Source: Microcaldota archaeon
GTDB lineage: Archaea; Micrarchaeota; Micrarchaeia; Micrarchaeales; Micrarchaeaceae
Reading direction: 5' to 3'
Length of the DNA stretch: 58,433 nucleotides
Assembly (NCBI GenBank): GCA_030040895.1
Contig: JASHSJ010000002.1
Location: 1-58,433, forward strand
The notes beneath the pieces are model-generated. The model was not told the origin of the DNA and ran no database searches. It was given only the letters and a program-made list of their open reading frames with translations. The translations under genes were made by a program, and so were the position numbers. This document shows positions 9,290-35,280 of the stretch, one piece after another. Numbering within the stretch: the stretch's first letter is position 1; each line of letters starts with the position of its first letter.

Positions 9290-9721
9290 CTATACGGGCT
9301 TGAACAGCTCACGTATCATCTCCTTGCTGGCAGTTTTCTGTGGCATTGCAACGTAGTTGGCTCCAGCTTCAACAAGCTTGTCCCTTGCAAAATCGTCGTT
9401 GGCCCTAGTCGCTATGTATATGCCCTTGCTTGAATCGCGTGCTGCAAGAACACAGAAAAGATCCTTCGCGTCGTTGTCCATCGCTATCGCTATCGCCTTG
9501 GCAGAATCGATGGATGCCTCGCGGAGAGTTTTTGTTCTGGTGGCATCGCCAACTATGGCCCTGTAGCCGAGCTCCCTCACGCGCTCCACAACCTTGATAT
9601 CGTTGTCTATGACTATGAACTGGATTTCCTTTTCGTCAAGAAGCCTCACTATCTCCATGCCCACCCTGCCGAATCCGCAGATAATTACATGATTTTTCAG
9701 CAGTGGCACTTTCGTTGGCAT
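9290..9721 (-). CDS. Stand-alone RCK/TrkA-N nucleotide-binding protein
   Basis: The 143-residue protein is a single TrkA-N domain: beta1 HVIICGFGRVG (Gly loop 16-21) and an acidic residue closing beta2 (FIVIDND), which favours NAD(H) or related nucleotides. There is no TrkA-C domain and no membrane segment. It heads the operon with the two membrane RCK proteins and probably joins their cytoplasmic gating ring, as free RCK subunits do in MthK- and Ktr/Trk-type systems. A TATA-like sequence is near 9752-9764. Confidence 0.85.
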   Translation of the reverse strand: MPTKVPLLKNHVIICGFGRVGMEIVRLLDEKEIQFIVIDNDIKVVERVRELGYRAIVGDATRTKTLREASIDSAKAIAIAMDNDAKDLFCVLAARDSSKGIYIATRANDDFARDKLVEAGANYVAMPQKTASKEMIRELFKPV

Positions 9722-9776: not shown

Positions 9777-10427
9777 TCAGGGCAGTTCTGAGCCTGTGAT
9801 GTTTGCCAGCTCTGTGGAGCTGACGTTCTTGCCTAGTGCAAGTACCTGCGTAACGTAAGATCCTTTCCAGCCTATCAGGCTAGAGCCAGCGGCCGTTGAG
9901 TTGCTGCTGATCAGATACGAGTATGTCATTCCATTACTTGTGCCGTTCAGCGTTACTATGGTGCTGTTCGTGTAGTTGAGAAACTCTGTGTAGAGCCCCT
10001 GAGGTGTGTATCCTGGCATGGGCTGCACATAGAGCACAATCTGCAATATGCTAGAGTTTGTCTGGTTGTACCAGGCGCCCCATATCTCTGTTACGTTCCA
10101 TAGTCCTGTGAAACCAGGCTCGTAGTATTCCTCAAACGCGCTGATCTGCCCTGGATCGGTGGTGCTCGTCCAGTTGTAAATCCCTCCGGTTCCAATGAGC
10201 GATGCGGCCTGCTGCTGGCTGATGATTATCTGGCCTGACTGGCTAGCGTTTGCCGAGATGTTCTGGGTTATAGTTGTTGTTGGGACTGTAGTGGCGGCAG
10301 CAGTAGTGGGCAGAGTGGTTAGCGTGCTTTTTGGCTGGCCAAGCAAGGTCGCCGCTACGGCCAGCACTATCAAAACCACAATTACGATGAATATGATGAT
10401 CAGGAGGTTGATTGTTTGTCCTGGCAT
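9777..10427 (-). CDS. Secreted, membrane-anchored protein of unknown function
   Basis: The 216-residue protein has one N-terminal hydrophobic helix (about 6-29), a Thr/Ala-rich linker (about 33-55), and then an extracellular domain with many N-glycosylation sequons (N-x-S/T). No known fold is recognised. The layout (TM, Thr-rich stalk, globular domain) recurs in the 294-residue protein at 14278-15162. It starts 7 nt after the Cys-rich secreted protein gene and is likely co-transcribed with it. Confidence 0.65.
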   Translation of the reverse strand: MPGQTINLLIIIFIVIVVLIVLAVAATLLGQPKSTLTTLPTTAAATTVPTTTITQNISANASQSGQIIISQQQAASLIGTGGIYNWTSTTDPGQISAFEEYYEPGFTGLWNVTEIWGAWYNQTNSSILQIVLYVQPMPGYTPQGLYTEFLNYTNSTIVTLNGTSNGMTYSYLISSNSTAAGSSLIGWKGSYVTQVLALGKNVSSTELANITGSELP

Positions 10428-10434
10428 AGAATCA

Positions 10435-11040
10435 CTAGTTTATCCCATATCTTGATCCAAGAGTCCAGTTGCCGTTCACATAGGCGCACTTGCAGTTCTG
10501 GTTGTTTGTACCGTTTGCAATGCCATCACAGGGTATGTTTGCCCTGCCTACGACAGAAATATCAACAATGCACGTTGCTTGTGACGTGCACGATGATGGG
10601 CAGGCTTCCGGCTGCGTCGGGTCTGGATGGCACACGCACGATGTAGCGTTGCCCTGCCCATAATCAGTCTGGTAGCCAGCACACCTTGCATATGGCTTGT
10701 AGATCTCTGATTGATTTACGTTGCAGTTAACGGCTGATGGGCCGCTACCCGGCGAACCCCCTACGCTGAACAGGTAGCAAGCCATCGGGCAGATGTTGGC
10801 GCCAGGGCTAGGTGCGCTCGGTGAAAAACCGAAGACAAGCTTATTGTGGGCTCCGGGCTTGGCGAACGGCCTGCCGAAGAATGTTGCAAAGTTAATGAAT
10901 CCGGGGCGTGTTCCTCCGGCTGCGAAGCTCAATGAGCCGCCGGATGGCTGCGCCGCATAGCTAGAAGAAAAAGATATAACCGTAAACACAACCAAGATCA
11001 CGATTGCAAAAACGGCGACCCCCCAGAGCCGTTCATTCAT
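10435..11040 (-). CDS. Secreted cysteine-rich protein of unknown function
   Basis: Starting at ATG 11040, the 201-residue protein has one N-terminal hydrophobic helix (about 5-27), which is a signal peptide or anchor. The mature part holds about 12 cysteines, several in pairs (SCVC, ACPSSC, NCKC), suggesting disulfides outside the cell. A TATA-like sequence at about 11063-11072 sits the right distance for a leaderless mRNA from 11040. The open frame extends upstream to 11106, but that part is not signal-like. The family is not recognised. Confidence 0.65.
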   Translation of the reverse strand: MNERLWGVAVFAIVILVVFTVISFSSSYAAQPSGGSLSFAAGGTRPGFINFATFFGRPFAKPGAHNKLVFGFSPSAPSPGANICPMACYLFSVGGSPGSGPSAVNCNVNQSEIYKPYARCAGYQTDYGQGNATSCVCHPDPTQPEACPSSCTSQATCIVDISVVGRANIPCDGIANGTNNQNCKCAYVNGNWTLGSRYGIN

Positions 11041-11097
11041 GTTGTAGCTATTGCACCCAACCATTATAAACATTCCTAAACTTGATTTAGCGCCGGC

Positions 11098-11124
11098 ACA
11101 TGCCAACTTCGATGTCGAATTGGC
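11098..11124 (+). repeat. Repeat family copy, diverged (acatgccaacttc type)
   Basis: The copy shares acatg, caacttc, and gaattggc with the copy at 15756-15822 in the same order and spacing. It lacks the tagctcca part. It lies just upstream of the minus-strand Cys-rich protein gene and is the leftmost copy seen. Confidence 0.5.
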
Positions 11125-11540: not shown

Positions 11541-11571
11541 ATAATATAGCTCCAGCATATGATGCTGCTAG
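11541..11571 (+). repeat. Repeat family copy (atatagctccagc) acting as SET-gene promoter region
   Basis: Contains atatagctccagc followed by an AGCAT/ATGCT inverted repeat in place of the usual hairpin. On the minus strand it reads GGAGCTATATTATTATAATG, a TATA-rich element 25-35 nt before the SET gene start at 11515. Same orientation as all other copies. Confidence 0.5.
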
Positions 11572-11642
11572 TGGAAAGTATGGTCTTAGTATGGTCTTAT
11601 AAATGGATGCAAACCAAGTAAACCATCTGCAAAGTAGATATT

Positions 11643-14174
11643 ATGGCTAAACCTATCCTTCATGGACACCACATAATGTTGGCAATAATAATATCATACT
11701 TTTTGATTCTTATTACTCTTGGCACTACGCTAGTGGGCCTGGCGGGTGCAATGGCGTGCGTCCTTGTCAACGGGGTACCGCAATGTATCACAGTATCAAC
11801 CACGATGCACTACTCTAGCTCTACTACTTTGAAGTCCAGCACTACACTATCTTCATCTTCAACCACACTGGAATCATCGAGCACTAGCACAATAACTATG
11901 CCAATTACGATCATGATAAGTAATGGCTGCGTCCAGCTAACTCAGTCAAATGCGATATACTTGCTGACTAGCAACATTGGCTGCAATGCCACCACCATCA
12001 GTCTTGTAAAAGGCGTTAGCGGGATAACCTTGAATTGCCAGGGTCACGAGATTGAGAACTATGCTCCAATCGAAGTTAATAATTACTCTCTTGATTTTCT
12101 GGGACAAAATAACAACAATATAGTAGAAAATTGTGTGATAAATCTTCCTTCTATTCCGCTTAACCACGCTGTAGCACAAACAATACTTGTGGCAAACAAT
12201 TCCAACCATAATGTCTTTTCAAACATTAACTTGGCCGCAAACACCTCTATCACGGTGATAAATTCCTCCTACATTGGTATAACCAATAGCGTGTTTACCT
12301 ATTCACTGGGCGCAGTACTAGCAACGAACTCGAGCGGCGATTACATCTACAATAATACGATTTTAAATGCGCTGACTGGGATTTCTCTGATAAATACGTC
12401 AAACACCCAGGTCCTAGGCAACAAAATATACAACGCCATTAATAGCGCCCTACTGATTGGCAAGAGTGACAACAACACCCTTAAAAACAACGTGATGGAC
12501 TGGAGTTATGATGACGCAATACAGACAAGATATATCGAAGCAAACGGGCAAGTTTATGTCGTAAACGGTACTACAATTGCGAACAACATAGCATTTGGCG
12601 ATGCGGACGCGTTCCTTGAAGACATTGGCAGCGACAACACCCTCATAGCAAACAACATAATAGGAGGCATCGGAAATGCGGCCATATGGTTCAATCTCTT
12701 CCCCGGTTTTAATCCCCCTCCTCCTGGCACCTTTTTTGATAATCATACGACAATCATAAACAACGTCTTCTATTCAATCAGCGGACAAAACTACGTGTAC
12801 AATGACTCCCCGCCGGGCGGAGTCAATCACGTTACGCTTTCCGACAACCTATTTACCAACTATACTCTAAATTCGTATCCACAGTACATAGCATTCTTTG
12901 TTGAGGTTGTTGGGACTTTTATAGTGGATACTTCGACTGGCGCCCACGCAATAAGGGCAACGAACATTAGCAATATGGCACTAACCCCATATATAAATGG
13001 TGTACAGCTGCCTAAGTTGCTGAAAGGGCAATCGGTAGCTTATGCTGGCGTAAACCTCACTTACTTCGGATTCTCACCCCTTTCTGATGCTGCCTATGCT
13101 TATGTAACCGCAGCAAGCAATACACAACAACCTCCAACATCCATAGTAGCTAGTGCGTCCCAGACAGGCATTCCTATTAATACTATCTTTAACCTGGTTG
13201 CCTATGTTCAAAATCCACCTCCAAAAGCTTACAACTTGAATTTCTGTGTTTGCAGCGGAGCTGGATGTAATCCTTCTGCTTCCCAATGCGAGCAATATGG
13301 TTTACCTGAAGCTGGCGGCGCTATCAGTGGTTTTTACCCGCTTTGCGTTTCCCCCGGATTCCCAGGTTGCTATGCACTCGGCACCTATGGGCTACAGGCA
13401 TATGTGGTACTGGCGAACGGCTTAACTTTGAGCAGCTCCACTAATACATTCACTATAATACCACCCCCTCCTCAGGTATCTCTCAACTGGTCCCAGACAA
13501 ACGTAACCGTGGGCAATTCTGTCACGGCAAACGCACTAGTCACGAACCCCCCATCAATGACATACTATACCCAACTCCATTATTGCAATGGCATATGCAA
13601 TCCAACGTCAAGCAGTCCAACGATAGGCAATGCCGTTTATAATTCCACAAATCCATCATTGTCCTTCAACACTTCCGAAACATCTAGCACCTGCCCACCT
13701 GGCGCTGGCAACTGCCTCGGACCAGGCAACTATACCATTATAGCATGCACCACATATGGCACACCAACGCCAACGTATAATGTATGCAGTAGCGGCTTTC
13801 TCTGGCTATTGAACGTCACAGGATATCCACTGGTGTCAATTTCGAGCATATCTCCAAATCCAGCCGCATATAATGCGCAAATAACGATAGCGACAACAAT
13901 CACAAACCCCCCAGCCAACGGAGACTACATAGCGCTTTTTGAATGCTCACCGGCGCCTTGCACGCCATCAACCTCTAACATAGGCTATGAGGGCCAGAGC
14001 CTATCCGGCAGTGTTGGAAAATACGATTTCACTGTATGCGGCCACGCGTATTGCTGGCCGGCTGGAAATTATAACGTAACGGCGTGCGTTTCTGGGATAT
14101 TGAGCACCCCCGGACCTCCATGGCCCTATTGCAGCGCAGTGGAAGGACTCACTGTAGAAGATCAAGGCGGTTAG
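11643..14174 (+). CDS. Large surface protein: parallel beta-helix plus Cys-rich NPP repeats
   Basis: The 843-residue protein begins with a hydrophobic helix (GHHIMLAIIISYF onward, about 8-37) and a Ser/Thr-rich stalk (about 55-90). Residues about 110-430 have the repeating N-N-x-I/V pattern of right-handed beta-helix (PbH1/NosD-like) proteins, with ITLNCQGHEI as a typical first rung. From about 500 to the end there are three Cys-rich beta domains starting at NPP. The same domains and a nearly matching leader occur in the 402-residue protein at 50016-51224. Beta-helices often bind or cleave polysaccharide; no catalytic residues are evident. It likely sits on the outer surface. Confidence 0.75.
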   Translation: MAKPILHGHHIMLAIIISYFLILITLGTTLVGLAGAMACVLVNGVPQCITVSTTMHYSSSTTLKSSTTLSSSSTTLESSSTSTITMPITIMISNGCVQLTQSNAIYLLTSNIGCNATTISLVKGVSGITLNCQGHEIENYAPIEVNNYSLDFLGQNNNNIVENCVINLPSIPLNHAVAQTILVANNSNHNVFSNINLAANTSITVINSSYIGITNSVFTYSLGAVLATNSSGDYIYNNTILNALTGISLINTSNTQVLGNKIYNAINSALLIGKSDNNTLKNNVMDWSYDDAIQTRYIEANGQVYVVNGTTIANNIAFGDADAFLEDIGSDNTLIANNIIGGIGNAAIWFNLFPGFNPPPPGTFFDNHTTIINNVFYSISGQNYVYNDSPPGGVNHVTLSDNLFTNYTLNSYPQYIAFFVEVVGTFIVDTSTGAHAIRATNISNMALTPYINGVQLPKLLKGQSVAYAGVNLTYFGFSPLSDAAYAYVTAASNTQQPPTSIVASASQTGIPINTIFNLVAYVQNPPPKAYNLNFCVCSGAGCNPSASQCEQYGLPEAGGAISGFYPLCVSPGFPGCYALGTYGLQAYVVLANGLTLSSSTNTFTIIPPPPQVSLNWSQTNVTVGNSVTANALVTNPPSMTYYTQLHYCNGICNPTSSSPTIGNAVYNSTNPSLSFNTSETSSTCPPGAGNCLGPGNYTIIACTTYGTPTPTYNVCSSGFLWLLNVTGYPLVSISSISPNPAAYNAQITIATTITNPPANGDYIALFECSPAPCTPSTSNIGYEGQSLSGSVGKYDFTVCGHAYCWPAGNYNVTACVSGILSTPGPPWPYCSAVEGLTVEDQGG

Positions 14175-14177
14175 TTC

Positions 14178-14205
14178 GATATAGCTCCAGCGTATATCAA
14201 GCTAT
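14178..14205 (+). repeat. Repeat family copy (gatatagctccagcg)
   Basis: Directly after the stop of the beta-helix gene, atatagctccagcgtat matches the family core. The usual hairpin is replaced by ATAGCT/AGCTAT flanking arms. No minus-strand gene starts nearby, so promoter use is not evident here. Confidence 0.5.
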
Positions 14206-14235
14206 GGGTCGAACCGACTCTCCGTTTCCGTTGGC

Positions 14236-14248
14236 TTAATATATTTAA
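14236..14248 (+). promoter_or_regulatory. TATA box for the secreted protein gene at 14278
   Basis: The TATA-like run ttaatatatttaa ends 30 nt before ATG 14278, which fits leaderless archaeal transcription and argues against the TTG at 14266 as start. Confidence 0.5.
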
Positions 14249-14277
14249 CTATTGATTATGCTGCATTGCGTGATTCG

Positions 14278-15162
14278 ATGGAAGCCGACCCACCTTTACA
14301 GAGCCGGACTTCCGATACCGCACCAGAGACAGCTTATGCGCCCAAAAGCGTAAGCAGGGGCCCAATTGTCGCTGGCGTACTCGCGGTAGTAATCGTGATT
14401 TGCCTTGCTTATTTATATCTCAGTGGTGGGATTGGTAGTGCTGCAAAAATGCAAGGTGCAACCACGGCAAGCACCCAACCTACTACTACACAGGCCACTA
14501 GCACGTATTCCGGTACCTATGATGGACAGTACGTGACACTGACTAGATTATTTGGAGCAAGCACGTCTATTGAGGACCTGCCTGACGCCACACAGGTCGG
14601 CTATTTATACAACTTTTCGACTACCAATTCTACAGTTGCGTGCCTGGATGGCGAACCGATACTCGTCTGGACGGCGCCAAATGAATATCCTGGTGAATAT
14701 ATAGCACACAATGGTAATCAAGGTACACAGTGCGCTTATGTAACTCTGCTATTCCCGCAAAGTTCCACTGTTACAACACCGCCACCGCAAAGTTCCACTG
14801 TTACAACACCATCTGCATCCGAATTAACATTCCAATTTAGCAATATAGCAAACTATGACAATGGGCCTACTGTCACGTTGTTTAATGGGGGCGAGCTTAT
14901 ATTCGATACATCAAACGATACAGCATCGGTGACTTTGAGCAACGGGACGATTATCAATTTCGGCCAGCTCACATCAATATGCCACAGTTGCACTTCTGGG
15001 GCATATGCATATTCAAAAGACTGGAGCCCTGATCAGAAGATTGAAGATGGTATAGAATTTGAGGCGGTTTTTGTGAGCAATATAACAACATCTTACATAT
15101 CTTTCGAGTATCCGCCGAGCATCAATAACTATGCCTATTCCGCTAATTATAGTGCGCCATAG
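14278..15162 (+). CDS. Secreted or membrane-anchored protein with Thr/Ser stalk, unknown function
   Basis: The protein (294 residues from ATG 14278) has a cytoplasmic N-terminus of about 35 residues, one membrane helix (about 36-55), a Thr-rich linker and an extracellular region. That region holds a short domain, a ten-residue tandem repeat (PQSSTVTTPP twice, DNA period 30 nt), and a second domain with several N-glycosylation sequons. No family is recognised. The architecture matches the 216-residue protein at 9777-10427. It is followed after 11 nt by a repeat-family copy. Confidence 0.62.
   Translation: MEADPPLQSRTSDTAPETAYAPKSVSRGPIVAGVLAVVIVICLAYLYLSGGIGSAAKMQGATTASTQPTTTQATSTYSGTYDGQYVTLTRLFGASTSIEDLPDATQVGYLYNFSTTNSTVACLDGEPILVWTAPNEYPGEYIAHNGNQGTQCAYVTLLFPQSSTVTTPPPQSSTVTTPSASELTFQFSNIANYDNGPTVTLFNGGELIFDTSNDTASVTLSNGTIINFGQLTSICHSCTSGAYAYSKDWSPDQKIEDGIEFEAVFVSNITTSYISFEYPPSINNYAYSANYSAP
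14755..14810 (+). repeat. Tandem duplication, 30-nt period, within the coding region
   Basis: Two identical 26-nt copies (14755-14780 and 14785-14810) are spaced exactly 30 nt apart, encoding a repeated ten-residue Pro/Ser/Thr linker. Exact identity suggests a recent slippage event and likely length variation between strains. Confidence 0.8.
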
Positions 15163-15173
15163 GCAAGCAAAAG

Positions 15174-15210
15174 TTGCTCCAGCGTAATCCAACTTCAATG
15201 TTGGATTAGC
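15174..15210 (+). repeat. Repeat family copy with perfect 9-bp hairpin
   Basis: ttgctccagcg is followed by TAATCCAAC, a 6-nt loop, and GTTGGATTA, then gc. The 21 nt gctccagcg...cttc segment (15176-15196) is identical to parts of the copies at 17102-17155 and 19839-19871. It lies at the downstream end of the Doc-toxin module, between it and the convergent plus-strand gene. Confidence 0.7.
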
Positions 15211-15226
15211 CCGCTTATCCCTGCCC

Positions 15227-15346
15227 TTAGCGCATTCTTGTTTTGGCCTGCAATGCTATAGCGTAGACTTCATCCCTAAGCCTAGCTTCAAGCGCAGCCC
15301 AGCGCTTTCTTTCCTTCTTCAATATTGTCATGAAGCTCTTGTTCAT
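15227..15346 (-). CDS. Small basic ORF overlapping the Doc toxin gene (39 aa)
   Basis: ATG 15346 overlaps the doc stop codon as ATGA, and the frame runs 39 codons to TAA at 15227. The product begins MNKSFMTILKKE and is helical and Arg/Lys-rich (ERKRWAALEARL). The translational coupling is the main support. It could be a small partner or antitoxin of the Doc-like toxin, or just a short chance frame. No family is recognised. Confidence 0.4.
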   Translation of the reverse strand: MNKSFMTILKKERKRWAALEARLRDEVYAIALQAKTRMR

Positions 15347-15705
15347 TCAATCATCTTCTTTATCCATCTTTTTACTTGTAGCCGGTTTTCTTTTCCCTGT
15401 GCTATCTTATTCAGATAGGTTCCTACGACATCTATTTGGCTTTTCTTATATTTAAATGTAATGTTGTTGAGTTCGAGGAACGTTACCATTGAATAGAAAG
15501 CTGTCCTTTTGTTGCCATTGAGGAATATGTGCAATGATATTATGTCATGGAGAAGCACGGCAGCATAATTGAATATGTCATCAGTATATTCCAGCTTGTC
15601 CATCAGCTGGGCCAAGTTCGATTTGTTCAGAACAGTGCCACCCTCTTCTATGCTTTTATTTACCGCTATTATCTGCTCCGAAGTGAGCTTTACAAGTTCA
15701 GACAT
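15343..15705 (-). CDS. doc: Doc-type (Fic fold) toxin
   Basis: The 120-residue protein carries the Fic/Doc motif HIFLNGNKRT at residues 59-68. In Doc, a kinase-like Fic relative, HxFxxxNKR directs phosphorylation of EF-Tu and stops translation. In Fic AMP-transferases the end is GNGR; here NKR favours the Doc type. The typical partner Phd is encoded upstream, but no Phd-like gene is present. Instead a 39-codon ORF overlaps downstream. The promoter region is the repeat-family element at 15757-15794, about 50 nt before the start. Confidence 0.82.
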   Translation of the reverse strand: MSELVKLTSEQIIAVNKSIEEGGTVLNKSNLAQLMDKLEYTDDIFNYAAVLLHDIISLHIFLNGNKRTAFYSMVTFLELNNITFKYKKSQIDVVGTYLNKIAQGKENRLQVKRWIKKMIE

Positions 15706-15755
15706 ACACTGACTTCACTCCTAAGCCTTAAAGCTTTTGTTGGAGAAGAGAAAGT

Positions 15756-15822
15756 GTGATTTTGCTAATTTGAGTTTACCTTTATATAGCTCCAACATGT
15801 CAACTTCAAAGTTGAATTGGCC
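15756..15822 (+). repeat. Repeat family copy with 38-bp conserved block and hairpin
   Basis: A 38-nt block (15757-15794) identical to those at 16337 and 17987 is followed by a TCAAC/GTTGA hairpin with a 6-nt loop and gaattggcc. It separates the doc module from the DUF4258 gene. Confidence 0.75.
15757..15794 (-). promoter_or_regulatory. Conserved TATA promoter block upstream of doc
   Basis: Read on the minus strand: GGAGC TATATAAAGG, then about 25 conserved nt. The TATATAAA (plus 15781-15788) puts transcription start near 15757-15760, 52-55 nt before the doc ATG. The same 38 bp precede two unrelated gene modules. Confidence 0.55.
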
Positions 15823-15837
15823 AATATGAGTAAAGTT

Positions 15838-16071
15838 TCATGGCAAATATTTTTTAATTTTCTTAGTTTCCCATGCCGTAATTATGAACTTTACGCCGCC
15901 GCTAAGCGAATATATGACTATAACAACTTTATTTCCGAATAGCTTGATTGCTTGATATTCGTCATCTTTTCTGTGTAGCTTGTCTGGTGCATCTGCCGTC
16001 AGACTTACCTGTTCGGCACTAAGCTTCCTTTCGGCAATCCTCTTGAGCGCATGCTTAGAGAAAATCAGCAT
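15838..16071 (-). CDS. DUF4258 protein, putative RelE-like toxin
   Basis: The 77-residue protein begins with the DUF4258 pattern FSKHALKRIAERKLS and ends with IITAWET. DUF4258 has a predicted RelE/ParE-like fold and is commonly encoded next to small antitoxin-like genes. The start codon overlaps the stop of the DUF2283 gene by one base (TAATG), implying coupled expression. RNase or other toxin activity is inferred from fold and context only. Confidence 0.72.
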   Translation of the reverse strand: MLIFSKHALKRIAERKLSAEQVSLTADAPDKLHRKDDEYQAIKLFGNKVVIVIYSLSGGVKFIITAWETKKIKKYLP

Positions 16072-16301
16072 TAACTTACCAGGACTACATTTTCAAACTC
16101 TTTTACGAGCTTTCCCAGTTTGAAGTTTACTTTTGAGAAGTTTAGTATCTCTATGCCGATAAGCTTCTTGTTCTTGTCGAGATCGGCTAGTACATTGTCC
16201 TCTATTTCTGCGGTTTCGTAGACTTTTGCCCCTTTCTTAACCTTTATGTATGCAGCGTCGGCCTCTTGATCGTATTCGAATATGTATTCCTTCATAATCA
16301 T
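16071..16301 (-). CDS. DUF2283 protein, putative antitoxin partner
   Basis: The 76-residue protein matches DUF2283: EYDQEADAAYIKV near residues 9-21, TAEIEDNVLADLD in the middle, and the GIEIL motif. DUF2283 and DUF4258 genes are often adjacent in archaea and bacteria and are treated as a toxin-antitoxin-like pair. Start may be ATG 16301 or the next ATG at 16295. Its promoter is the conserved block 16337-16374, giving a leader of roughly 36 nt. Confidence 0.75.
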   Translation of the reverse strand: MIMKEYIFEYDQEADAAYIKVKKGAKVYETAEIEDNVLADLDKNKKLIGIEILNFSKVNFKLGKLVKEFENVVLVS

Positions 16302-16336
16302 GTTTGGTGCGAATCTGTATTAAAGCCTTTCGTATT

Positions 16337-16374
16337 TGATTTTGCTAATTTGAGTTTACCTTTATATAGCTCCA
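16337..16374 (-). promoter_or_regulatory. Conserved TATA promoter block upstream of the DUF2283/DUF4258 pair
   Basis: The same 38 bp as at 15757-15794 and 17987-18024, read on the minus strand with TATATAAA at plus 16361-16368. Predicted transcription start near 16337-16340, about 36-40 nt before the DUF2283 ATG. Confidence 0.55.
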
Positions 16375-16403
16375 GCGTAATCCGACTTCGATGTTGAGAT
16401 AGC
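16338..16403 (+). repeat. Repeat family copy with 38-bp block, between DUF2283 and VapC genes
   Basis: The identical 38-nt block (16337-16374) runs into gcgtaatccgacttcgatgttgag, where the hairpin is weakened by substitutions, and ends with tagctc, the beginning of another unit. A separate CTACT/AGTAG inverted repeat follows at about 16413-16426. Confidence 0.75.
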
Positions 16404-16441
16404 TCTGAATTACCTACTCTCGAGTAGTCCGATTTAAAGAT

Positions 16442-16822
16442 TTAATTGAACAGTTCAAGTCCATTACGTTGCATATCCTTAAAATGATCCCTATCAAATG
16501 TGTATAACTTCCCTTTGTTGTTTATTGTTATTGCTGCAATCATTGTGTCTGTTCTGCGTACCCGCCTGCCTCTCCCTTCTGTTTCGAATTCAAGCGCCGC
16601 GGATAAAACAGAATCAGCTTTCGTATACTCTAGAACTGGCAAGCCTAATATGTTTTGAGCTTCTTTGGCATATTTGTATATACCATATAGCACCTCATGG
16701 AGTGTTATTGTAGTTATCCCTATGTCTTCACCGGCTTCTGCAATTTTCCTGAGCGCCTCATCTCCTTTCTCTGATTGCTTCTCGAAAATCTCTATTAGAA
16801 CATCTGTATCTATGACAATCAT
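16442..16822 (-). CDS. vapC: VapC-type PIN-domain ribonuclease toxin
   Basis: The 126-residue PIN protein has the acidic metal-binding set: D5 in VIDTD, E43 in LHEVLYG, D92 in RTDTMIA and D110 in YTFDRDHF. VapC toxins cleave RNA, often tRNA or rRNA, when freed from VapB. It starts one base after the end of the vapB gene, so the two are coupled. Confidence 0.9.
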   Translation of the reverse strand: MIVIDTDVLIEIFEKQSEKGDEALRKIAEAGEDIGITTITLHEVLYGIYKYAKEAQNILGLPVLEYTKADSVLSAALEFETEGRGRRVRRTDTMIAAITINNKGKLYTFDRDHFKDMQRNGLELFN

Positions 16823-17032
16823 TTATCTCAGCTCTGCTCTTTTGGCATAGATCTCGTTTAGCATGCCCTTCTTGTCTCTAAACACAAACCTGCCTCTTAA
16901 CCCTTTGAGGGCATCGAGAGGCGTGGCAAGCTTCACCAGCCTATCGAATAAATCGCTAAAGCTTTCGCTCTTCTTTTTGACTTTTGTCAGCTCCAGATAT
17001 ACTTCATTTTTTATTGTTATTGTCTTGGACAT
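16823..17032 (-). CDS. vapB: VapB antitoxin, DUF217 (UPF0330) family
   Basis: The 69-residue protein matches the archaeal DUF217 antitoxin: a SKTITIKNEVYLEL strand-helix start, the ESFSDLFDRL motif near residues 23-32, and a basic C-terminal tail that would wrap VapC. It neutralises VapC and should repress its own promoter. An imperfect 20-bp palindrome at 17039-17058 and a TATA-like run near 17057-17068 are placed for that role. Confidence 0.88.
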   Translation of the reverse strand: MSKTITIKNEVYLELTKVKKKSESFSDLFDRLVKLATPLDALKGLRGRFVFRDKKGMLNEIYAKRAELR

Positions 17033-17038
17033 AATATC

Positions 17039-17058
17039 GTTTAAACATATGTGTAAAC
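17039..17058 (-). promoter_or_regulatory. Imperfect palindrome, probable VapB operator
   Basis: The 20-nt GTTTAAACATATGTGTAAAC differs from its own reverse complement at one symmetric pair of positions. It lies 7 nt before the vapB ATG and abuts the TATA-like run. A dimeric antitoxin could autoregulate here. Confidence 0.55.
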
Positions 17059-17101
17059 ATATATTTAAGTATTTCTATCAACTAGGCATTTTAGATAACC
17101 T

Positions 17102-17155
17102 CAACTTCTAAGTCGACTTAGCTCCAGCGTAATCCAACTTCTGAGTTGAATTAGC
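17102..17155 (+). repeat. Repeat family copy carrying an exact 27-nt tRNA-Gln 3'-end direct repeat
   Basis: 17102-17128 is identical over 27 nt to 19855-19881, which spans the last 10 nt of tRNA-Gln plus its flank. It is followed directly by a second unit (tagctccagcgtaatcc...) with a CCAAC/GTTGA-type hairpin ending in ttagcc. It lies between vapB and the metallopeptidase gene. Confidence 0.8.
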
Positions 17156-17192
17156 CTCACGAAAACACTAAGTGCTATCTATGATTTGGCGT

Positions 17193-17969
17193 TTATTGAG
17201 ATAAACGCTTCTTTGGCAATATGGCCTTTGGCCACTGTCTTGCAGCAGCTGGTGCAGGAAGCTCTTTGAAGAATTTGAACAGGGCAGTTCTTCTTTTGCT
17301 AGGCTTGGTTTCCGCTTCTATCAATTTAATGAACATATCAACATATTTCAAATTTTTTTCAAATGTTGTTTTTGCTCCGTGCTTTTTAGTCCATTCGATC
17401 CGCTCCTTCAAGAACCCGACATCCCTGCCATAGTAATTTCCAAGATAGTATTCCGCAAACACTGTCATGCCTTCGTTATATTTCCATCTATTGTCCCCTG
17501 TGTTATAAAACCCCAGTCTGTTGTAATTGAAAAGCGTGTGCATCCATTCGTGGAACATTACATCGAAAGAGTCTTCGGAGATTTTCTGCTTGGACGCTTT
17601 TACTATAGGAGAGTATCCCATGCTATTTGGCCTGATCTTCTTTGCTAGTTTTTCTATCATACTCTTATGTTTTGGATCATTTAGAAGTTTTATGTAACTA
17701 AGAATATACCGTTTTTGCACAGCAAGCCCTTTAGAGTCGATTTTGATTAGGTCGTTGGAGAGCAGAAATTTTTCGAAGTTTTTAGCCCTCTGTTGGCCTG
17801 GTTTACCGAATTTTTTATCATACGCTGGGCTCCCTGCTAGATAGTTCAATATATTAACCTCTTTCTTTGTCAAAAAACTCGCTACAAATATTTTACGATC
17901 GAATTTCAGGCCAAGCTGGTCTGCTTTCTCCCTTATTTTCCTCAAAACCTCTTCTTTGCCCTTGTGCAT
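17193..17969 (-). CDS. HEXXH zinc metallopeptidase-like protein
   Basis: The 258-residue protein has HEWMH at 140-144 and NEGMTVFAEY with Glu166, the gluzincin arrangement where two His and a downstream Glu bind Zn and the Glu of HEXXH activates water. There is no signal peptide, so it probably works in the cytoplasm unless exported another way. The N-terminal half is Lys-rich and helical; no family is recognised there. It lies within the repeat-delimited array, with the conserved 38-bp promoter block ending 18 nt before its start. Confidence 0.72.
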   Translation of the reverse strand: MHKGKEEVLRKIREKADQLGLKFDRKIFVASFLTKKEVNILNYLAGSPAYDKKFGKPGQQRAKNFEKFLLSNDLIKIDSKGLAVQKRYILSYIKLLNDPKHKSMIEKLAKKIRPNSMGYSPIVKASKQKISEDSFDVMFHEWMHTLFNYNRLGFYNTGDNRWKYNEGMTVFAEYYLGNYYGRDVGFLKERIEWTKKHGAKTTFEKNLKYVDMFIKLIEAETKPSKRRTALFKFFKELPAPAAARQWPKAILPKKRLSQ

Positions 17970-17985
17970 CTAAACACATTTGTTA

Positions 17986-18051
17986 GTGATTTTGCTAATT
18001 TGAGTTTACCTTTATATAGCTCCACCCTAATTCTAATGACTTTAGGGTTAG
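17986..18051 (+). repeat. Repeat family copy with 38-bp block and changed but intact hairpin
   Basis: After the shared 38 nt the arm sequence becomes ACCCTAA and TTTAGGGT: the hairpin is kept although the bases differ from the CCAAC/GTTGG arms of other copies. It sits directly upstream of the metallopeptidase gene. Confidence 0.75.
17987..18024 (-). promoter_or_regulatory. Conserved TATA promoter block upstream of the metallopeptidase gene
   Basis: Third exact copy of the 38 bp. TATATAAA at plus 18011-18018 predicts transcription start near 17987-17990, roughly 18-21 nt before the ATG at 17969. The rest of 18052-18187 shows no convincing gene. Confidence 0.55.
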
Positions 18052-18187
18052 TATCTTTTTGCATTCTCAAAGGAGTTTTAATATCGTTTTTCGATTACAT
18101 TCTGACCCTATACTATGGTACAGGGTTGCAAGATCCACAAGGAATTGATATTAAAACCCACGCAGAAACGGAAACGTAGTACTCCAA

Positions 18188-19720
18188 TTAGTCACTATGT
18201 ACCAAACCAGTCCACTCACCTGAAGTAACATTTGGTAAGGTAAGAGACCCGACAAGACTGGCCCCGCTTGCTACATAAAGTTTCGTACTATTCGCAATAT
18301 AGACATAGTTGTTAACAGGGTCGTAGCCGAACATCATAACAGTACTTGAAACGGCAGGTAGAGAGCCTGCTAATGAAGTTCCGCTTATAACTGCCGTTCC
18401 GCTTGCAGCAGGCACATAAACATAATTGTTCGAAGGATTGCTAAATAGATATGGAGCAGGTACGTTGTTATTGGTGCCACCTATATTGATATTTGCTATT
18501 GGGGTGTTGCTTCCACCAAATACAGTTATGTTGTTGCGTAATTGGAAGTAGGTATACCCGCTTTGGTTATTTTGCCCTAAATTATAGCCTGCCTGCAGAA
18601 TTCCCGTGCTATTATGAGTAGGAACCAAGGCTGTACCGTTAAATACTGATATCAAACCACCAGGAACCACCGGTGTGGAATACAGAGTGCCCTGTATCTG
18701 GTCGTAGCTCAAAGCACCAAAGTTACCATAAATCTTGTTTGTCAGACTTGTGCCGCTAATCAAGTAAAGAGTGTCGTTGGGGTAGCTTGCTAAACCATAT
18801 GTGTAACTTCCAAAAGAGTAAATTGGGGTTACGGTTCCTGATGTCGAAATTGTGGTTGCAAGCTGGGTTCCGGTTATCACAGCAATACCGCTGCCGAAAG
18901 TAGGAACGTACAGATGTTGGTTGTTGAAGCTCATGCTTCCACCAGGACAACCCGAAAGGCTTACAGTACTAACTAATGAGGTTCCGCTAACCACATATAC
19001 CTCGTTTGGAGAGCACGACGCTATGTACAAATCGTTATTGTAGGTATCGTACACCATGCCGACTGGCGAACTTATTGACAACATGCTGCTTACCAGTTGC
19101 CCGCCTTTGAAGATATTAAGTGAGAACGAAGAACCTGACGAAGAATTCAGCGCAAGAACGTAGGCGTATCCATTAGTTCCTGTACTACCCAGGGGCAGAT
19201 TTATTCGGCCCGATAGTGTTACCGTGCCAACGATCTGGGTGCCGTGAATCACAGATACCTCTCTTGATCCCTGAGAGAACGCATACATATAATCATTGTA
19301 ATTTTGCAACACGGTTGTCGTGGTACTAGAGGTTGTAGTAACTGACGTAGTGGAGCCAGACGAAGTACTACTTGTACTAGCTGAAATTGTAGATATAGTA
19401 CTTGATTGGGCTATTGTAGTAGAGCTTGAGGAGGTACCACCAATGATAGATATTGTTGGAACCGTTGTTTGCTGGGTAGAAGTGACAGGAGCAGTAGCAG
19501 ATGCAGGTACTATTGTTGGTGTAGTTGTTGATACAGAGGTGGTGCTTGTAGTAGTTGAACCTGTAAAGAGATGTGAAAAGAAGTTAGCAATTCCATGGAA
19601 GAAATTAGTAATTGAGCTAAAAATCCCCAGATAAACAGGATTGGGCAGTATGCTAGAGGCGCTTACAATACTGATCAGCAAGGTTGATGCCAAGAGCATT
19701 AAAACTAAGGACTTAGACAT
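18188..19720 (-). CDS. Secreted YVTN-type beta-propeller surface protein
   Basis: The 510-residue protein has an N-terminal signal or anchor helix (about 4-22) and a Ser/Thr-rich stalk (about 55-145). A run of roughly seven to eight repeats follows, of the form YDxxNNxxYVxSGTSLVxTVxLSG, typical of YVTN/40-residue beta-propellers of archaeal surface-layer proteins. The repeat sequences are close to each other, so the propeller probably arose by recent internal duplication. It likely mediates surface contact. TATA-like tttaaa at 19743-19748 fits a leaderless mRNA. Confidence 0.8.
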   Translation of the reverse strand: MSKSLVLMLLASTLLISIVSASSILPNPVYLGIFSSITNFFHGIANFFSHLFTGSTTTSTTSVSTTTPTIVPASATAPVTSTQQTTVPTISIIGGTSSSSTTIAQSSTISTISASTSSTSSGSTTSVTTTSSTTTTVLQNYNDYMYAFSQGSREVSVIHGTQIVGTVTLSGRINLPLGSTGTNGYAYVLALNSSSGSSFSLNIFKGGQLVSSMLSISSPVGMVYDTYNNDLYIASCSPNEVYVVSGTSLVSTVSLSGCPGGSMSFNNQHLYVPTFGSGIAVITGTQLATTISTSGTVTPIYSFGSYTYGLASYPNDTLYLISGTSLTNKIYGNFGALSYDQIQGTLYSTPVVPGGLISVFNGTALVPTHNSTGILQAGYNLGQNNQSGYTYFQLRNNITVFGGSNTPIANINIGGTNNNVPAPYLFSNPSNNYVYVPAASGTAVISGTSLAGSLPAVSSTVMMFGYDPVNNYVYIANSTKLYVASGASLVGSLTLPNVTSGEWTGLVHSD

Positions 19721-19788
19721 GTTAACTTATCTGCCAAAAAGGTTTAAATAGTAGTGCAAATAACGCTCAGAAATAGCTGTATTCTAAA

Positions 19789-19823
19789 GCCAAACCCGTA
19801 CAGATTCGAACTGGGGTCCTCGG
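19789..19823 (-). pseudogene. Decayed tRNA 3'-end (T-arm) remnant
   Basis: Shares a 14-nt T-arm sequence (cagattcgaactgg at 19801-19814) exactly with tRNA-Gln at 19882-19895, but the T stem pairs over only 3 bp and no 5' half is visible. It is best read as a leftover tRNA 3' end. Confidence 0.45.
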
Positions 19824-19838
19824 CGACAAGAAATTCCG

Positions 19839-19871
19839 TAGCTCCAGCGTAATCCAACTTCTAAGTCGACT
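19839..19871 (+). repeat. Repeat family copy abutting the tRNA-Gln 3' end
   Basis: One 33-nt unit (tagctccagcgtaatcc...gact) ends exactly where the tRNA-Gln gene's own tagctccagc begins. The unit and the tRNA end form a tandem arrangement, and 19855-19881 is the 27-nt sequence repeated at 17102-17128. Confidence 0.8.
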
Positions 19872-19944
19872 TAGCTCCAGCCAGATTCGAACTGGCGTCG
19901 CAAGGTCCAGAGCCTTGCATCCTTGACCACTAGACGATGGAGCT
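19872..19944 (-). tRNA. tRNA-Gln (CTG anticodon)
   Basis: On the minus strand: acceptor AGCTCCA/TGGAGCT, discriminator A, anticodon stem CAAGG/CCTTG around loop CTCTGGA (anticodon CTG), and T arm GCCAG TTCGAAT CTGGC. CCA is not encoded. The A1-U72 first pair fits archaeal tRNA-Gln. Its 3' end sequence recurs in the repeats to the left, marking it as a likely integration site. Confidence 0.92.
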
Positions 19945-22151: not shown

Positions 22152-23672
22152 ATGGACGCGCAAGATCCAGTTCAGGACAATGACGGCGAGACAAAAGTAC
22201 TGCTGCACTACTCGCTGCTGGCCAACGGGCTGCCCGTCGAGATAAACATAAAGCAGACGAAGGACTTCGTTCCTGGATACAACATTATATTCCCCGGCAT
22301 AGGAACGGCCACGAAGCTCCTGGTATTGTCGCTCAGAAGCGAACTCCTTTCAATGGTGCCCATAGACCCGAGCAAGATCAACGAGAAGGAATACATAGCT
22401 GAACTGACAAGAAAGGTTGCAGCCGCAAGCAGGATCCTGATAGAAAAACACCTTCCGGGAACGAAGAAGGATGTTGAGGACATTCTCGTTGCATACATGG
22501 TAAACATGATGCTGGGCCTGGGAGACCTCGAAGCCCCGCTGGCTGACGAAAACCTTGAAGAGATCGCGGTCAACGGCGCCAGGGAAAACATCTGGGTTTT
22601 CCACAAGACGATAGGCTGGTGCAAGACGAACATAAAGCCGCACAGCGAGGACGCGATATACGACCAGGCGGAGCTAATAGGCAGGAGGGTGGGAAGGGAG
22701 ATAAACAATCTGTCTCCGCTCATGGATGCGGTTCTGTCTGACGGATCTAGGGTGAACGCGACGCTCTTCCCCGTTTCGCAGACAGGAAACACCATAACTA
22801 TAAGGAAGTTCGAGAAAAATCCTTGGACCATGCCTGCCCTAGTAAAAAACGGGACTCTCAGCGCGGAGATGGGTGCGCTTATATGGCTTTGCATACAGAA
22901 TGAGATCAGCCTCCTCATATCAGGAGGCACCGCCAGCGGAAAGACCAGTCTGCTGAACGCCGCATCGATATTCTTCCCCGCGACAAGAAGAATCATATCG
23001 GTGGAGGAAACAAAGGAGCTCTCGCTTCCTAACTTCTTCCAGTGGGTTTCCATGCTGGAGAGGCAGCCTAACCCGGAAGGAAAGGGAGAGGTGAGGCTGT
23101 ACGACCTTATGATAAACGCTCTCAGGCAGAGGCCAGACATAGTTCTGGTAGGGGAAATAAGGACGGCGCAGGATGCGGAAACGCTGTTCGAGGCCATACA
23201 TACTGGCCACGCGGTATACGGGACAGTGCACGCCGACAACGCCCAGGACACTGTACTGAGGATGACAAACCCGCCCATCAGCACGCCAAAGATCCTGCTG
23301 AACGCACTGGGCGGAGTGGTGACTACTTTCAGGCACAGGACAAGAAGCATAAGGAGGGTTTTGGACCTTGCAGAAGTCCTGACAAACGGAGACGTAAATG
23401 TAATATATAGATGGGACCTGAGGAACGATGCATTCAGAAAGCTTGGGGAGCTCACAAGGCTCGTGGACACTATAGAGCTCTACGGAGGCCTCAACAGGAG
23501 GGAGATAGAGGAGCAGGTCGCGGAGAAGGCTGAAATACTCAGATGGATGACCAGGTATTCGGTGATCGGAGTGGACCAGGCTGGATTCCTCGTGTCGAAC
23601 TACTATAGGAATCCGTCTAAGGTGCTCGACATAGTGAGGTACAACACACCATATTCAGACAATTTGTTTTAG
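22152..23672 (+). CDS. FlaI/TadA-type secretion ATPase (GspE superfamily)
   Basis: The 506-residue cytoplasmic ATPase drives assembly of archaeal type IV pili or archaella. An N-terminal domain (about 15-235) precedes the RecA-like core. The core has Walker A GGTASGKTS at 258-266, an Asp-box-type SVEETKEL, Walker B VLVGEIR at 331-337 and the His box TGHAVYGTVHAD at 351-362. The protein should form a hexamer. Two GspF-type membrane platform genes follow in the same operon. Confidence 0.93.
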   Translation: MDAQDPVQDNDGETKVLLHYSLLANGLPVEINIKQTKDFVPGYNIIFPGIGTATKLLVLSLRSELLSMVPIDPSKINEKEYIAELTRKVAAASRILIEKHLPGTKKDVEDILVAYMVNMMLGLGDLEAPLADENLEEIAVNGARENIWVFHKTIGWCKTNIKPHSEDAIYDQAELIGRRVGREINNLSPLMDAVLSDGSRVNATLFPVSQTGNTITIRKFEKNPWTMPALVKNGTLSAEMGALIWLCIQNEISLLISGGTASGKTSLLNAASIFFPATRRIISVEETKELSLPNFFQWVSMLERQPNPEGKGEVRLYDLMINALRQRPDIVLVGEIRTAQDAETLFEAIHTGHAVYGTVHADNAQDTVLRMTNPPISTPKILLNALGGVVTTFRHRTRSIRRVLDLAEVLTNGDVNVIYRWDLRNDAFRKLGELTRLVDTIELYGGLNRREIEEQVAEKAEILRWMTRYSVIGVDQAGFLVSNYYRNPSKVLDIVRYNTPYSDNLF

Positions 23673-23681
23673 GTTGGTATC

Positions 23682-24404
23682 ATGGCAGAAGAGAAAGCAG
23701 AGAAAACGTACAGCGAACTTGCAGCCATGATAGAGAGCGTTGAGGCCGGTTATTCCCCTACTGAGATAGTCAACCTTGATCTTAATGAAATGCTTAAGTC
23801 GGAGCAAAACCCCAATCCAATAAAGTATTCTGACATGCTTGCGATCATAGAGGAGTTCGAGGGTCCGCAAAGGGGGAGTCGCGTGGCGATTGGAAAGCCA
23901 GGAACGACACAGCAGGCATATCAGCAGCCGGCTCAGCAACAGCAGCCTGTTGTGCCACAGGTGCCTCAGCCGCAACAACAGCAACAGCAACCAATGCCAC
24001 AGATAGTGCAGCCGCAGCCAGCCAACGGCAGCGTAGCTCCAAGGGAGAAGCGCAAGATAGCCGCCAAGCTGGAACTTGGCAAGGCTATTGATCAGCTGGG
24101 AGAGCTGGAGGCAGAGATAAAGATGAGGTCAATAAGCACTGATGATCTGGTACTGCCCAATCTATCCGTGCCAGACCAGATATCAGAACTGGAAAGAATC
24201 ATAGAAGGGCTTAGGACCGGAGTGTTTGACAAAGACCATCTTGATACGGTAAGGCAGGAGCTGCAAGGACTCGACAAGATAGTCCAGCTGCAGAAAGCCA
24301 AGATGAAAGTATCGGGAAGGGCGGGAGACAGCGAGGAGATAATGATACGTGACCAGAGGCTCAAGAGTGCGCTTGAGCTGCTCAGGCAGCAGGGTGTTAG
24401 ATAG
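23682..24404 (+). CDS. Pro/Gln-rich linker protein of the pilus operon
   Basis: The 240-residue soluble protein has a helical N-terminal domain (about 1-62), a Gln/Pro-rich disordered middle (about 75-112) and a helical, charged C-terminal half. No family is recognised. It lies 9 nt after the ATPase gene, and its stop overlaps the GTG start of the GspF-like gene (TAGTG), so expression is coupled. The next protein also has a Pro/Gln-rich N-terminal tail, so the two may contact each other or the ATPase. Confidence 0.7.
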   Translation: MAEEKAEKTYSELAAMIESVEAGYSPTEIVNLDLNEMLKSEQNPNPIKYSDMLAIIEEFEGPQRGSRVAIGKPGTTQQAYQQPAQQQQPVVPQVPQPQQQQQQPMPQIVQPQPANGSVAPREKRKIAAKLELGKAIDQLGELEAEIKMRSISTDDLVLPNLSVPDQISELERIIEGLRTGVFDKDHLDTVRQELQGLDKIVQLQKAKMKVSGRAGDSEEIMIRDQRLKSALELLRQQGVR

Positions 24405-25612
24405 TGGCGTGGTTCTCCAAGAAAAAGAAGGTCATTGAGGTAGGAGGAAAGAAGATAGAGCTAGAGCCAAAGCCATCGAGGATCGGTTTTCTGGGCTTTG
24501 GCAGGAAGCCGCGGGCCCAGCAGGCAGCACAGCCAACGCCGCAGCCGCAGATCAAGGTGCCGCAGCCAGAGCAAAAAATAAACTTCAACCTTCCGTTCAG
24601 CAAGAATCAAGAACCGCAGGCAGGTGCAGCACCGCAACAGAAACCGGCGCAGCAACCCGCATCTGGCGAGTTGCAGGTGCCGCAGCCAAAGCTGGAAATA
24701 CCGAAGCTGGTCGTGCCAAAAGTGCAGCAAGAAAGGCAGAGACCGCCTGCCGTTCCCGCCGGCAAGCGGCAGACTGGCAATTTCCTTGACAACTATCTTG
24801 CAGGCGCATTGGCGGGGCAGAAGAATCTCCCGAACCTGCTCAGGGAGGAAGGGATAGCCGGAACTCCATTGCAGTTTGTGCGCAGGATGTTTACAGCCGC
24901 GCTGATGATCGCCACTGTCATAACTGTGGTATTTGCGGCGCTGCTCAGCATAGCGGGAGTGGATATACTTGAAACTGTGGTACTTGCCGTGATGATGGGC
25001 GTGGCGTCTTACGGCATAGCATTCAACCTGTTCCTGCAGTATCCAGCCGCAAAGAGGGCAAGAAGCGCGAAGATCATAGAACGCGATATATTGTTCGCAG
25101 CAAGGGACATGATAATATCACTTAGATCAGGAATGCCGCTGTTTGATGCAATAAAGGCGGTCAGCACTGGATACGGAGATGCAAGCAAAGAATTTTCGAA
25201 GATAGTAGAGAAGGCGCAGTTCAGGGTGCCGCTTGACGAGGCTATAGATTCGACCATTTCGGAGTCAAAGAGCCCGTCGTTCAAGAAGATAATGCTGCAG
25301 GCATCGGTCAGCATAAGAGCGGGGGCAGACGTCGTCGCGGCGCTGCAGGCGGTCATAGACCAGCTGCAGCAGGAGAGGATCATTGAGCTGAGGGCGTACG
25401 GCCAGAAGCTAAACGCGCTGGCGATGTTCTACATGCTTTTCGGCGTCATACTGCCAAGCATGGGAATAGCGGTGCTTACAATACTGACGACTTTCATAGC
25501 GATATTCACGGTCAATACTACGCTTCTGGGGCTGATGATAGCTTTCATATTCATAGTACAGCTTGTATTTCTCAGGCTGATAGTAGCATCAAGGCCGGTA
25601 TTTGCTTTGTGA
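24404..25612 (+). CDS. GspF/FlaJ/TadB-type membrane platform protein with P/Q-rich tail
   Basis: The 402-residue protein starts at GTG 24404. Residues 1-130 are a basic, Pro/Gln-rich cytoplasmic tail. Two membrane helices (about 163-205) precede a T2SSF domain with the typical DMIISLRSGMPLFDAI helix, then two more membrane segments at the end. T2SSF proteins form the inner-membrane base acted on by the ATPase. The next gene is a second member, as in TadB/TadC. Confidence 0.86.
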   Translation: MAWFSKKKKVIEVGGKKIELEPKPSRIGFLGFGRKPRAQQAAQPTPQPQIKVPQPEQKINFNLPFSKNQEPQAGAAPQQKPAQQPASGELQVPQPKLEIPKLVVPKVQQERQRPPAVPAGKRQTGNFLDNYLAGALAGQKNLPNLLREEGIAGTPLQFVRRMFTAALMIATVITVVFAALLSIAGVDILETVVLAVMMGVASYGIAFNLFLQYPAAKRARSAKIIERDILFAARDMIISLRSGMPLFDAIKAVSTGYGDASKEFSKIVEKAQFRVPLDEAIDSTISESKSPSFKKIMLQASVSIRAGADVVAALQAVIDQLQQERIIELRAYGQKLNALAMFYMLFGVILPSMGIAVLTILTTFIAIFTVNTTLLGLMIAFIFIVQLVFLRLIVASRPVFAL

Positions 25613-25616
25613 TTCC

Positions 25617-29480: not shown

Positions 29481-29522
29481 CTATATCCACAATCACTTCT
29501 GAACATGCATTTAATATTTTTT

Positions 29523-34714: not shown

Positions 34715-34717
34715 CAC

Positions 34718-35278: not shown

Positions 35279-35280
35279 TT

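What the first reader, a model, noticed from the sequence alone, without database searches (positions are those of the whole stretch)
15757..18024. Three unrelated gene modules share a 38-bp identical TATA-containing upstream block
15757-15794, 16337-16374 and 17987-18024 are identical. They precede the Doc toxin, the DUF2283/DUF4258 pair and the peptidase, all on the minus strand. The TATATAAA inside fits transcription start at the block's end. Perfect identity while the downstream genes are unrelated implies recent copying or gene conversion and a common regulator, so the three modules may form one regulon.
Basis: partly seen in the sequence, partly recalled or inferred. Interest (0 to 1): 0.75.

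Follow-up and report, generated by a model that had tools for sequence, protein, structure and literature searches.

The report
Tandem gene cassettes at archaeal tRNA-Gln
The 38-base repeat upstream of three toxin-type or peptidase genes is real, but it looks like the leading edge of small gene cassettes stacked one after another at the end of a tRNA gene, with a copy of the tRNA's last eight bases at every joint, rather than evidence of a shared genetic switch.

Summary
In detail: the 38-mer is identical at 15757-15794, 16337-16374 and 17987-18024 and occurs nowhere else in the 764-kb genome. The regulon reading is not supported. Read on the minus strand, the block starts exactly with TGGAGCTA, the 3' acceptor strand plus discriminator base of the tRNA-Gln gene at 19872-19944. 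Seven exact copies and one variant of that octamer lie downstream of the tRNA on its strand (P about 2e-9). They cut 11547-19872 into seven one-gene or one-operon units (surface protein, membrane-anchored protein, Doc, DUF2283+DUF4258, VapBC, putative metallopeptidase, secreted protein) and a 25-bp empty unit. In relatives the same tRNA-Gln lies 60 bp to 3 kb from a TrkA-like gene; here the gap is 10.2 kb. No other tRNA of the genome has such an array, but several have one downstream copy of their 3' end; one such copy encloses the only tyrosine recombinase detected. Best explanation: a tandem array of non-autonomous integrative cassettes at a tRNA end, the 38-mer being attachment core plus a shared leading arm that might also carry a promoter. 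It works somewhat like an integron but fails the integron tests. Recombination itself is inferred, not shown.

The parts
19872..19944 (-). tRNA-Gln (CTG); its 3' end GCTGGAGCTA is the presumed attachment site
19839..19846 (-). core copy TGGAGCTA, joint 0, 25 bp beyond the tRNA end
19847..19871 (-). 25-bp empty unit between tRNA end and joint 0; tRNA end plus arm AGTCGACTTAGAAGTTG identical over 27 nt to 17102-17128
17987..18024 (-). 38-bp block 1: core (18017-18024) plus leading arm of the metallopeptidase cassette
16337..16374 (-). 38-bp block 2: core (16367-16374) plus leading arm of the DUF2283/DUF4258 cassette
15757..15794 (-). 38-bp block 3: core (15787-15794) plus leading arm of the Doc cassette
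17119..17126 (-). core copy, joint 2, before the VapBC cassette (other leading arm)
15174..15181 (-). core variant TGGAGCAA, joint 5
14182..14189 (-). core copy, joint 6 (TACGCTGGAGCTATAT, same 16 nt as joint 3)
11547..11554 (-). core copy, joint 7, outermost; possibly the displaced original flank of the tRNA
17127..17156 (-). trailing end of the metallopeptidase cassette, inverted repeat
16375..16404 (-). trailing end of the VapBC cassette (no stable hairpin)
15795..15822 (-). trailing end of the DUF2283/DUF4258 cassette, inverted repeat
15182..15211 (-). trailing end of the Doc cassette, strongest inverted repeat
18025..18047 (-). trailing end of the 510-aa protein cassette; unrelated inverted repeat CCCTAA/TTAGGG
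18188..19720 (-). 510-aa secreted-type protein (cassette gene)
17193..17969 (-). 258-aa putative zinc metallopeptidase (HEWMH motif; no family match)
16442..17032 (-). VapB antitoxin (16823-17032) and VapC PIN toxin (16442-16822)
15838..16301 (-). DUF2283 (16071-16301) and DUF4258 (15838-16071) pair
15343..15705 (-). Doc/Fic toxin-type protein, 120 aa
14266..15162 (+). 298-aa membrane-anchored protein, cassette gene in the opposite orientation
11643..14174 (+). 843-aa beta-helix surface protein, outermost cassette gene, opposite orientation
9290..9721 (-). TrkA-like gene that directly follows tRNA-Gln in relatives; far border of the insertion

Best explanation
The stretch 11547-19872 is a tandem array of small, non-autonomous integrative gene cassettes inserted at the 3' end of tRNA-Gln in a small-genome archaeon. 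Each insertion recombined at the last bases of the tRNA (core TGGAGCTA), regenerated the tRNA and pushed older cassettes outward, leaving one core per joint. The 38-bp block is the core plus the leading arm shared by three cassettes; a related trailing end with an imperfect inverted repeat closes most cassettes and may be a recombinase binding site. A tyrosine recombinase acting in trans, such as the one beside tRNA-Val in the same genome, is the likely enzyme. The leading arm may double as a promoter. Shown: the repeats, their identity with the tRNA end, one-strand clustering, and near-empty sites in relatives. Inferred: recombination, the enzyme, the order of insertion, any promoter role.
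For: Seven exact same-strand copies of the tRNA-Gln 3' octamer within 13 kb (P 2e-9); no other of the 42 tRNA loci has more than two. TGGAGCTA, with its one-base shifts, is among only two 8-mer families clustered this strongly in the window. The identity of the three 38-mers starts exactly at the core, and the bases before it differ. tRNA end plus flank matches joint 2 over 27 nt. Conserved order M50 protease - tRNA-Gln - TrkA in relatives, with gaps of 62, 80, 147, 194 bp up to 3.0 kb versus 10.15 kb here. G005 has a 1.47-kb VapBC-like unit bounded by GGCTGGAGCTA repeats at the same tRNA. Five tRNAs of this genome have a 12-nt downstream copy of their 3' end versus 0.63 expected; the 16-nt copy at tRNA-Val encloses the only PF00589 recombinase. 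A homologous DUF2283/DUF4258 pair in G094 lies between a tRNA-Leu and a fragment 58% identical to that recombinase; a peptidase homologue in G056 ends 22 bp from a tRNA-Arg 3' end.
Against: The core is only 8-11 bp. No recombinase lies in the array. Gene orientation differs between inner and outer units. Leading arms are of several kinds. No second tRNA-end copy was found beside the G056 and G094 homologues, and another peptidase homologue (G258) lies on the 5' side of a tRNA. The joint sequence is not found in the other 84 genomes of the family apart from one unconvincing 3-mismatch match. No reads or strains were available to show movement.
Confidence: 0.72

Rival explanations
1. One reading: a duplicated promoter element upstream of three unrelated modules, bound by a common regulator, so that the three form one regulon.
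For: Perfect identity of 38 bp with a TATATAAA inside, always upstream of a gene on the same strand; the element scores above the median of real upstream regions.
Against: The identity includes the tRNA 3' end and starts exactly there; five further core copies have no TATA arm. The score is not outside the random range and the distance to the start codon varies from 49 to 83 nt. It does not explain the 10-kb insertion between tRNA-Gln and TrkA.
Confidence: 0.1
2. A palindromic repeat family (REP-like) spread between genes, with chance similarity to the tRNA end.
For: Several joints carry a hairpin-forming inverted repeat, and a bacterial contig (L091, Thiotrichaceae) holds two copies of a palindrome GTCGGATTACGCTGGAGCTAATCCGAC that resembles the joint.
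Against: All copies are on one strand, confined to the stretch next to the tRNA whose 3' end they carry. Joints 1, 6 and 7 share only the core region and not the palindrome, and joints 0 and 3 do not fold stably. No Y1 transposase in the genome.
Confidence: 0.1
3. Transposon-type (for example casposon-like) insertion with short target duplications at the tRNA end, or an integron-type array.
For: Tandem insertion at one target is known for casposons (PMC6563490); gene followed by inverted repeat resembles the gene-attC order of integrons.
Against: Leading and trailing ends are not inverted copies of each other. The recombinase scores 26.9 bits against a 265-bit cut-off for integron integrases, no Rfam match other than the tRNA was credible, and the invariant joint is the tRNA core, not a GTTRRRY box.
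Confidence: 0.08

Closest known systems
Archaeal tRNA-targeted integrated elements of the tyrosine recombinase type, including tandem integrations (PMC8371274, PMC6563490)
   Same: Insertion at the 3' end of a tRNA gene, short direct repeats of the tRNA end (8 bp and more reported in Thaumarchaeota), re-use of one site by several elements, some elements without integrase
   Different: Here the units are single genes or operons of about 0.6-2.6 kb, at least seven in a row, none with an integrase or replication gene, with shared leading and trailing arms
Integrons and integrase-less attC clusters, also known in Archaea (PMC9668308)
   Same: Row of small cassettes rich in toxin-antitoxin genes, each followed by an inverted repeat; recombinase elsewhere
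   Different: No integron integrase, no attC detected, joint made of the tRNA end, some genes in reverse orientation
Tycheposons of marine bacteria (from memory; not read here)
   Same: Cargo at tRNA genes attributed to tyrosine recombinases, with units lacking their own
   Different: Archaeal host, much smaller units, many stacked at one tRNA

Membership tests
tRNA-targeted integrative element | Direct repeat of the tRNA 3' end at the far border | tested here: met
   Seven exact copies downstream of tRNA-Gln on its strand
tRNA-targeted integrative element | Empty or shorter site in relatives | tested here: met
   tRNA-Gln to TrkA gap 62-194 bp in four relatives, 10.15 kb here
tRNA-targeted integrative element | Own integrase in the element | tested here: not met
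   The only PF00589 match of the genome lies on another contig; units are therefore called non-autonomous
tRNA-targeted integrative element | Recombination or excision at the repeat | not testable with these tools
   No reads, strains or assays
Integron / attC cluster | Integron integrase | tested here: not met
   TIGR02249 26.9 bits against cut-off 265 for the only recombinase detected; genome 92% complete
Integron / attC cluster | attC sites with conserved boxes and fold at each joint | tested here: not met
   Inverted repeat absent or unstable at several joints; the invariant part is the tRNA core; no attC-type match in Rfam, though attC-specific software was not available
Casposon / transposon | Terminal inverted repeats | tested here: not met
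   Leading and trailing ends differ (alignment)
IS200/IS605 or REP element | Y1 transposase in the genome | tested here: not met
   No PF01797 match in own genome
Regulon with a shared promoter | Clear promoter element at a fixed distance from the genes | tested here: inconclusive
   4.14 bits; 49, 67 and 83 nt before the starts

The most novel reading that the evidence does not exclude
A general integron-like gene-capture system of small-genome archaea in which tRNA 3' ends are the capture platform: single-gene cassettes with standard leading and trailing arms, moved in trans by a tyrosine recombinase, stack at tRNA-Gln and sit singly at other tRNAs of the same genome.
Probability: 0.25. Interest if true: 0.8.

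Novelty: new variant of a known kind. Interest (0 to 1): 0.6.

Why it matters
How tiny-genome archaea gain and stack accessory genes such as toxin-antitoxin modules is poorly known. An array in which the tRNA end marks every joint gives exact unit borders, makes recombination directly testable, and supplies a search rule (repeated tRNA 3' ends downstream of tRNAs) for finding further arrays in uncultivated genomes.

Tried and rejected
The joint pattern was sought elsewhere: six single-pattern contigs in the genome collection and eleven in viral contigs, mostly chance matches inside genes; one bacterial contig (L091) has two copies of a similar palindrome, another (L089, archaeal) lies next to low-complexity repeats. 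The 22-bp core of the 38-mer is in no viral contig and no other locus fetched carries the 30-bp arm within 7 mismatches. attC sites, a hairpin transposase and inverted terminal repeats were considered and rejected. Terminators were rejected because no T-run follows the inverted repeats. The tRNA-end copy at C15:14057 (+8 kb) is probably chance. Paper searches for this kind of array in such archaea gave nothing, and none links DUF2283 with DUF4258.

Full report
Observation. The three 38-mers at 15757-15794, 16337-16374 and 17987-18024 are identical and the whole genome holds no further copy. The genes behind them are a Doc/Fic protein, a DUF2283/DUF4258 pair and a 258-aa HExxH protein. A VapBC operon (16442-17032) lies among them and is not preceded by the block.

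What the block is. Read on the minus strand, the block is TGGAGCTA followed by TATAAAGGTAAACTCAAATTAGCAAAATCA. TGGAGCTA is the 3' acceptor strand and discriminator base of the tRNA-Gln gene at 19872-19944, and most relatives' tRNA-Gln genes end the same way. Downstream of this tRNA, on its strand, the octamer recurs at 19839, 18017, 17119, 16367, 15787, 14182 and 11547, with a one-base variant at 15174. Seven exact copies in 13 kb have a Poisson probability of 2e-9 under equal base frequencies; among the 42 tRNA loci of the genome no other has more than two, although some lie near contig ends. As a composition-free check, only two 8-mer families in the whole window are as clustered on one strand: TGGAGCTA with its shifts, and CTTTATCT, which is a run of coding matches around the ribosomal protein and tRNA-synthetase genes.

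Anatomy. From the tRNA outward the units are: 25 empty bases, a 510-aa secreted-type protein, the putative metallopeptidase, VapBC, DUF2283/DUF4258, Doc, a 298-aa membrane-anchored protein and an 843-aa beta-helix protein; the last two genes are reversed. Most units end before the core with a related sequence of about 30 bp holding an imperfect inverted repeat (GGCTAATTCAACTCAGAAGTTGGATTACGC at joint 2). As single-stranded DNA it folds better than most shuffles at joints 1, 2, 4 and 5, but not at joints 0 and 3, so a fold is not a constant feature. Two leading arms recur: the 30 bp of the 38-mer, and AGTCGACTTAGAAGTTG at joint 2 and at the tRNA itself, where core plus arm match over 27 nt. The identity of the three 38-mers begins exactly at the core; the bases before it differ at all three sites.

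Relatives. An M50-type protease gene, tRNA-Gln and a TrkA-like gene are neighbours in relatives from genus to order. The gap from tRNA-Gln to TrkA is 62 bp in G025, 80 in G006, 147 in G015, 194 in G004, 0.46-0.9 kb in three others, 2.2-3.0 kb in four others, and 10.15 kb here. In G003 the gap holds a VapBC-like pair; in G005 a 1.47-kb unit with a VapBC-like pair is bounded by GGCTGGAGCTA repeats. The place is an insertion hotspot and this window holds the largest array among the genomes examined. Part of the 10 kb, two genes at 9777-11106, lies beyond the outermost core and is unexplained.

Other tRNAs. Five tRNA 3' ends of this genome have a 12-nt downstream copy with at most one mismatch, against 0.63 expected. 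Thirteen control searches (upstream, opposite strand, internal parts of the tRNA, shifted ends, tRNA flank) gave 0-2, except that the 3' flank gave 3, which includes the repeated arm of the present array. The clearest case is tRNA-Val at C15:2941, whose 16-nt copy 2.9 kb away encloses the only tyrosine recombinase detected in the genome. In G094 a DUF2283/DUF4258 pair follows a tRNA-Leu and adjoins a recombinase fragment 58% identical to that enzyme. In G056 the peptidase homologue (56% identical) ends 22 bp from a tRNA-Arg 3' end. In neither of these two was a second tRNA-end copy found, and a peptidase homologue in G258 lies on the 5' side of a tRNA-Thr.

Mechanism. Most likely each cassette entered by site-specific recombination at the tRNA end, restored the tRNA and displaced older cassettes outward; the recombinase presumably acted in trans, and the recurring arms are candidates for its binding sites. 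Recombination, the enzyme and the order of insertion are inferred. That three cassettes share an identical leading arm while their trailing ends differ by up to a fifth suggests that the leading arm is under constraint or recently shared.

Promoter question. A TATA-type matrix built from 333 upstream regions of this genome gives TATATAAAGG in the block 4.14 bits; random 30-mers have a 75th percentile of 2.83 and a 90th of 4.47. Its distance to the start codon is 49, 67 and 83 nt, and Doc and DUF2283 have alternatives at 28 and 24 nt. The arm may act as a promoter, above all for the metallopeptidase, but nothing points to a common regulator.

Known kinds. Tandem integration of whole elements at one site is known in archaea, and attachment sites as short as 8 bp are reported (PMC6563490, PMC8371274). 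Archaeal integrons with toxin-antitoxin cassettes are known (PMC9668308), but the integron tests were not met here. Word searches of the paper library found no account of tRNA-end cassette arrays in such archaea, which proves little.

Noticed in passing
G000:C15:1-3012 (L085): A 2.9-kb element at tRNA-Val bounded by a 16-nt copy of the tRNA 3' end; it holds the only tyrosine recombinase detected in the genome (L085:194-1168) and two further genes.
   Followed up: partly
G000:C13:12598 (L154), G000:C28:100 (L169), G000:C11:1211 (L164): Single-gene or few-gene stretches of 0.6-1 kb between a tRNA and a 10-12-nt copy of its 3' end, possible single cassettes.
   Followed up: partly
window 19801-19818: A second T-arm-like piece (GACCCCAGTTCGAATCTG on the minus strand, 17 of 18 bases as in tRNA-Gln) 20 bases beyond joint 0, perhaps a displaced tRNA fragment.
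   Followed up: no
window 9777-11106: Two genes between TrkA and the outermost core that are absent from the short gaps of relatives but not bounded by a recognisable core.
   Followed up: no
window 14755-14810: Perfect 26-bp tandem duplication (period 30) inside the 298-aa protein gene.
   Followed up: no
window 26619-38139: A row of very large surface-type proteins (about 840-950 aa) with pilin-like N-termini beside a secretion ATPase and TadC-like group at 22152-26615.
   Followed up: no
L091 (Thiotrichaceae contig): Two copies of a palindrome GTCGGATTACGCTGGAGCTAATCCGAC-type repeat resembling the joint sequence in an unrelated bacterium.
   Followed up: partly
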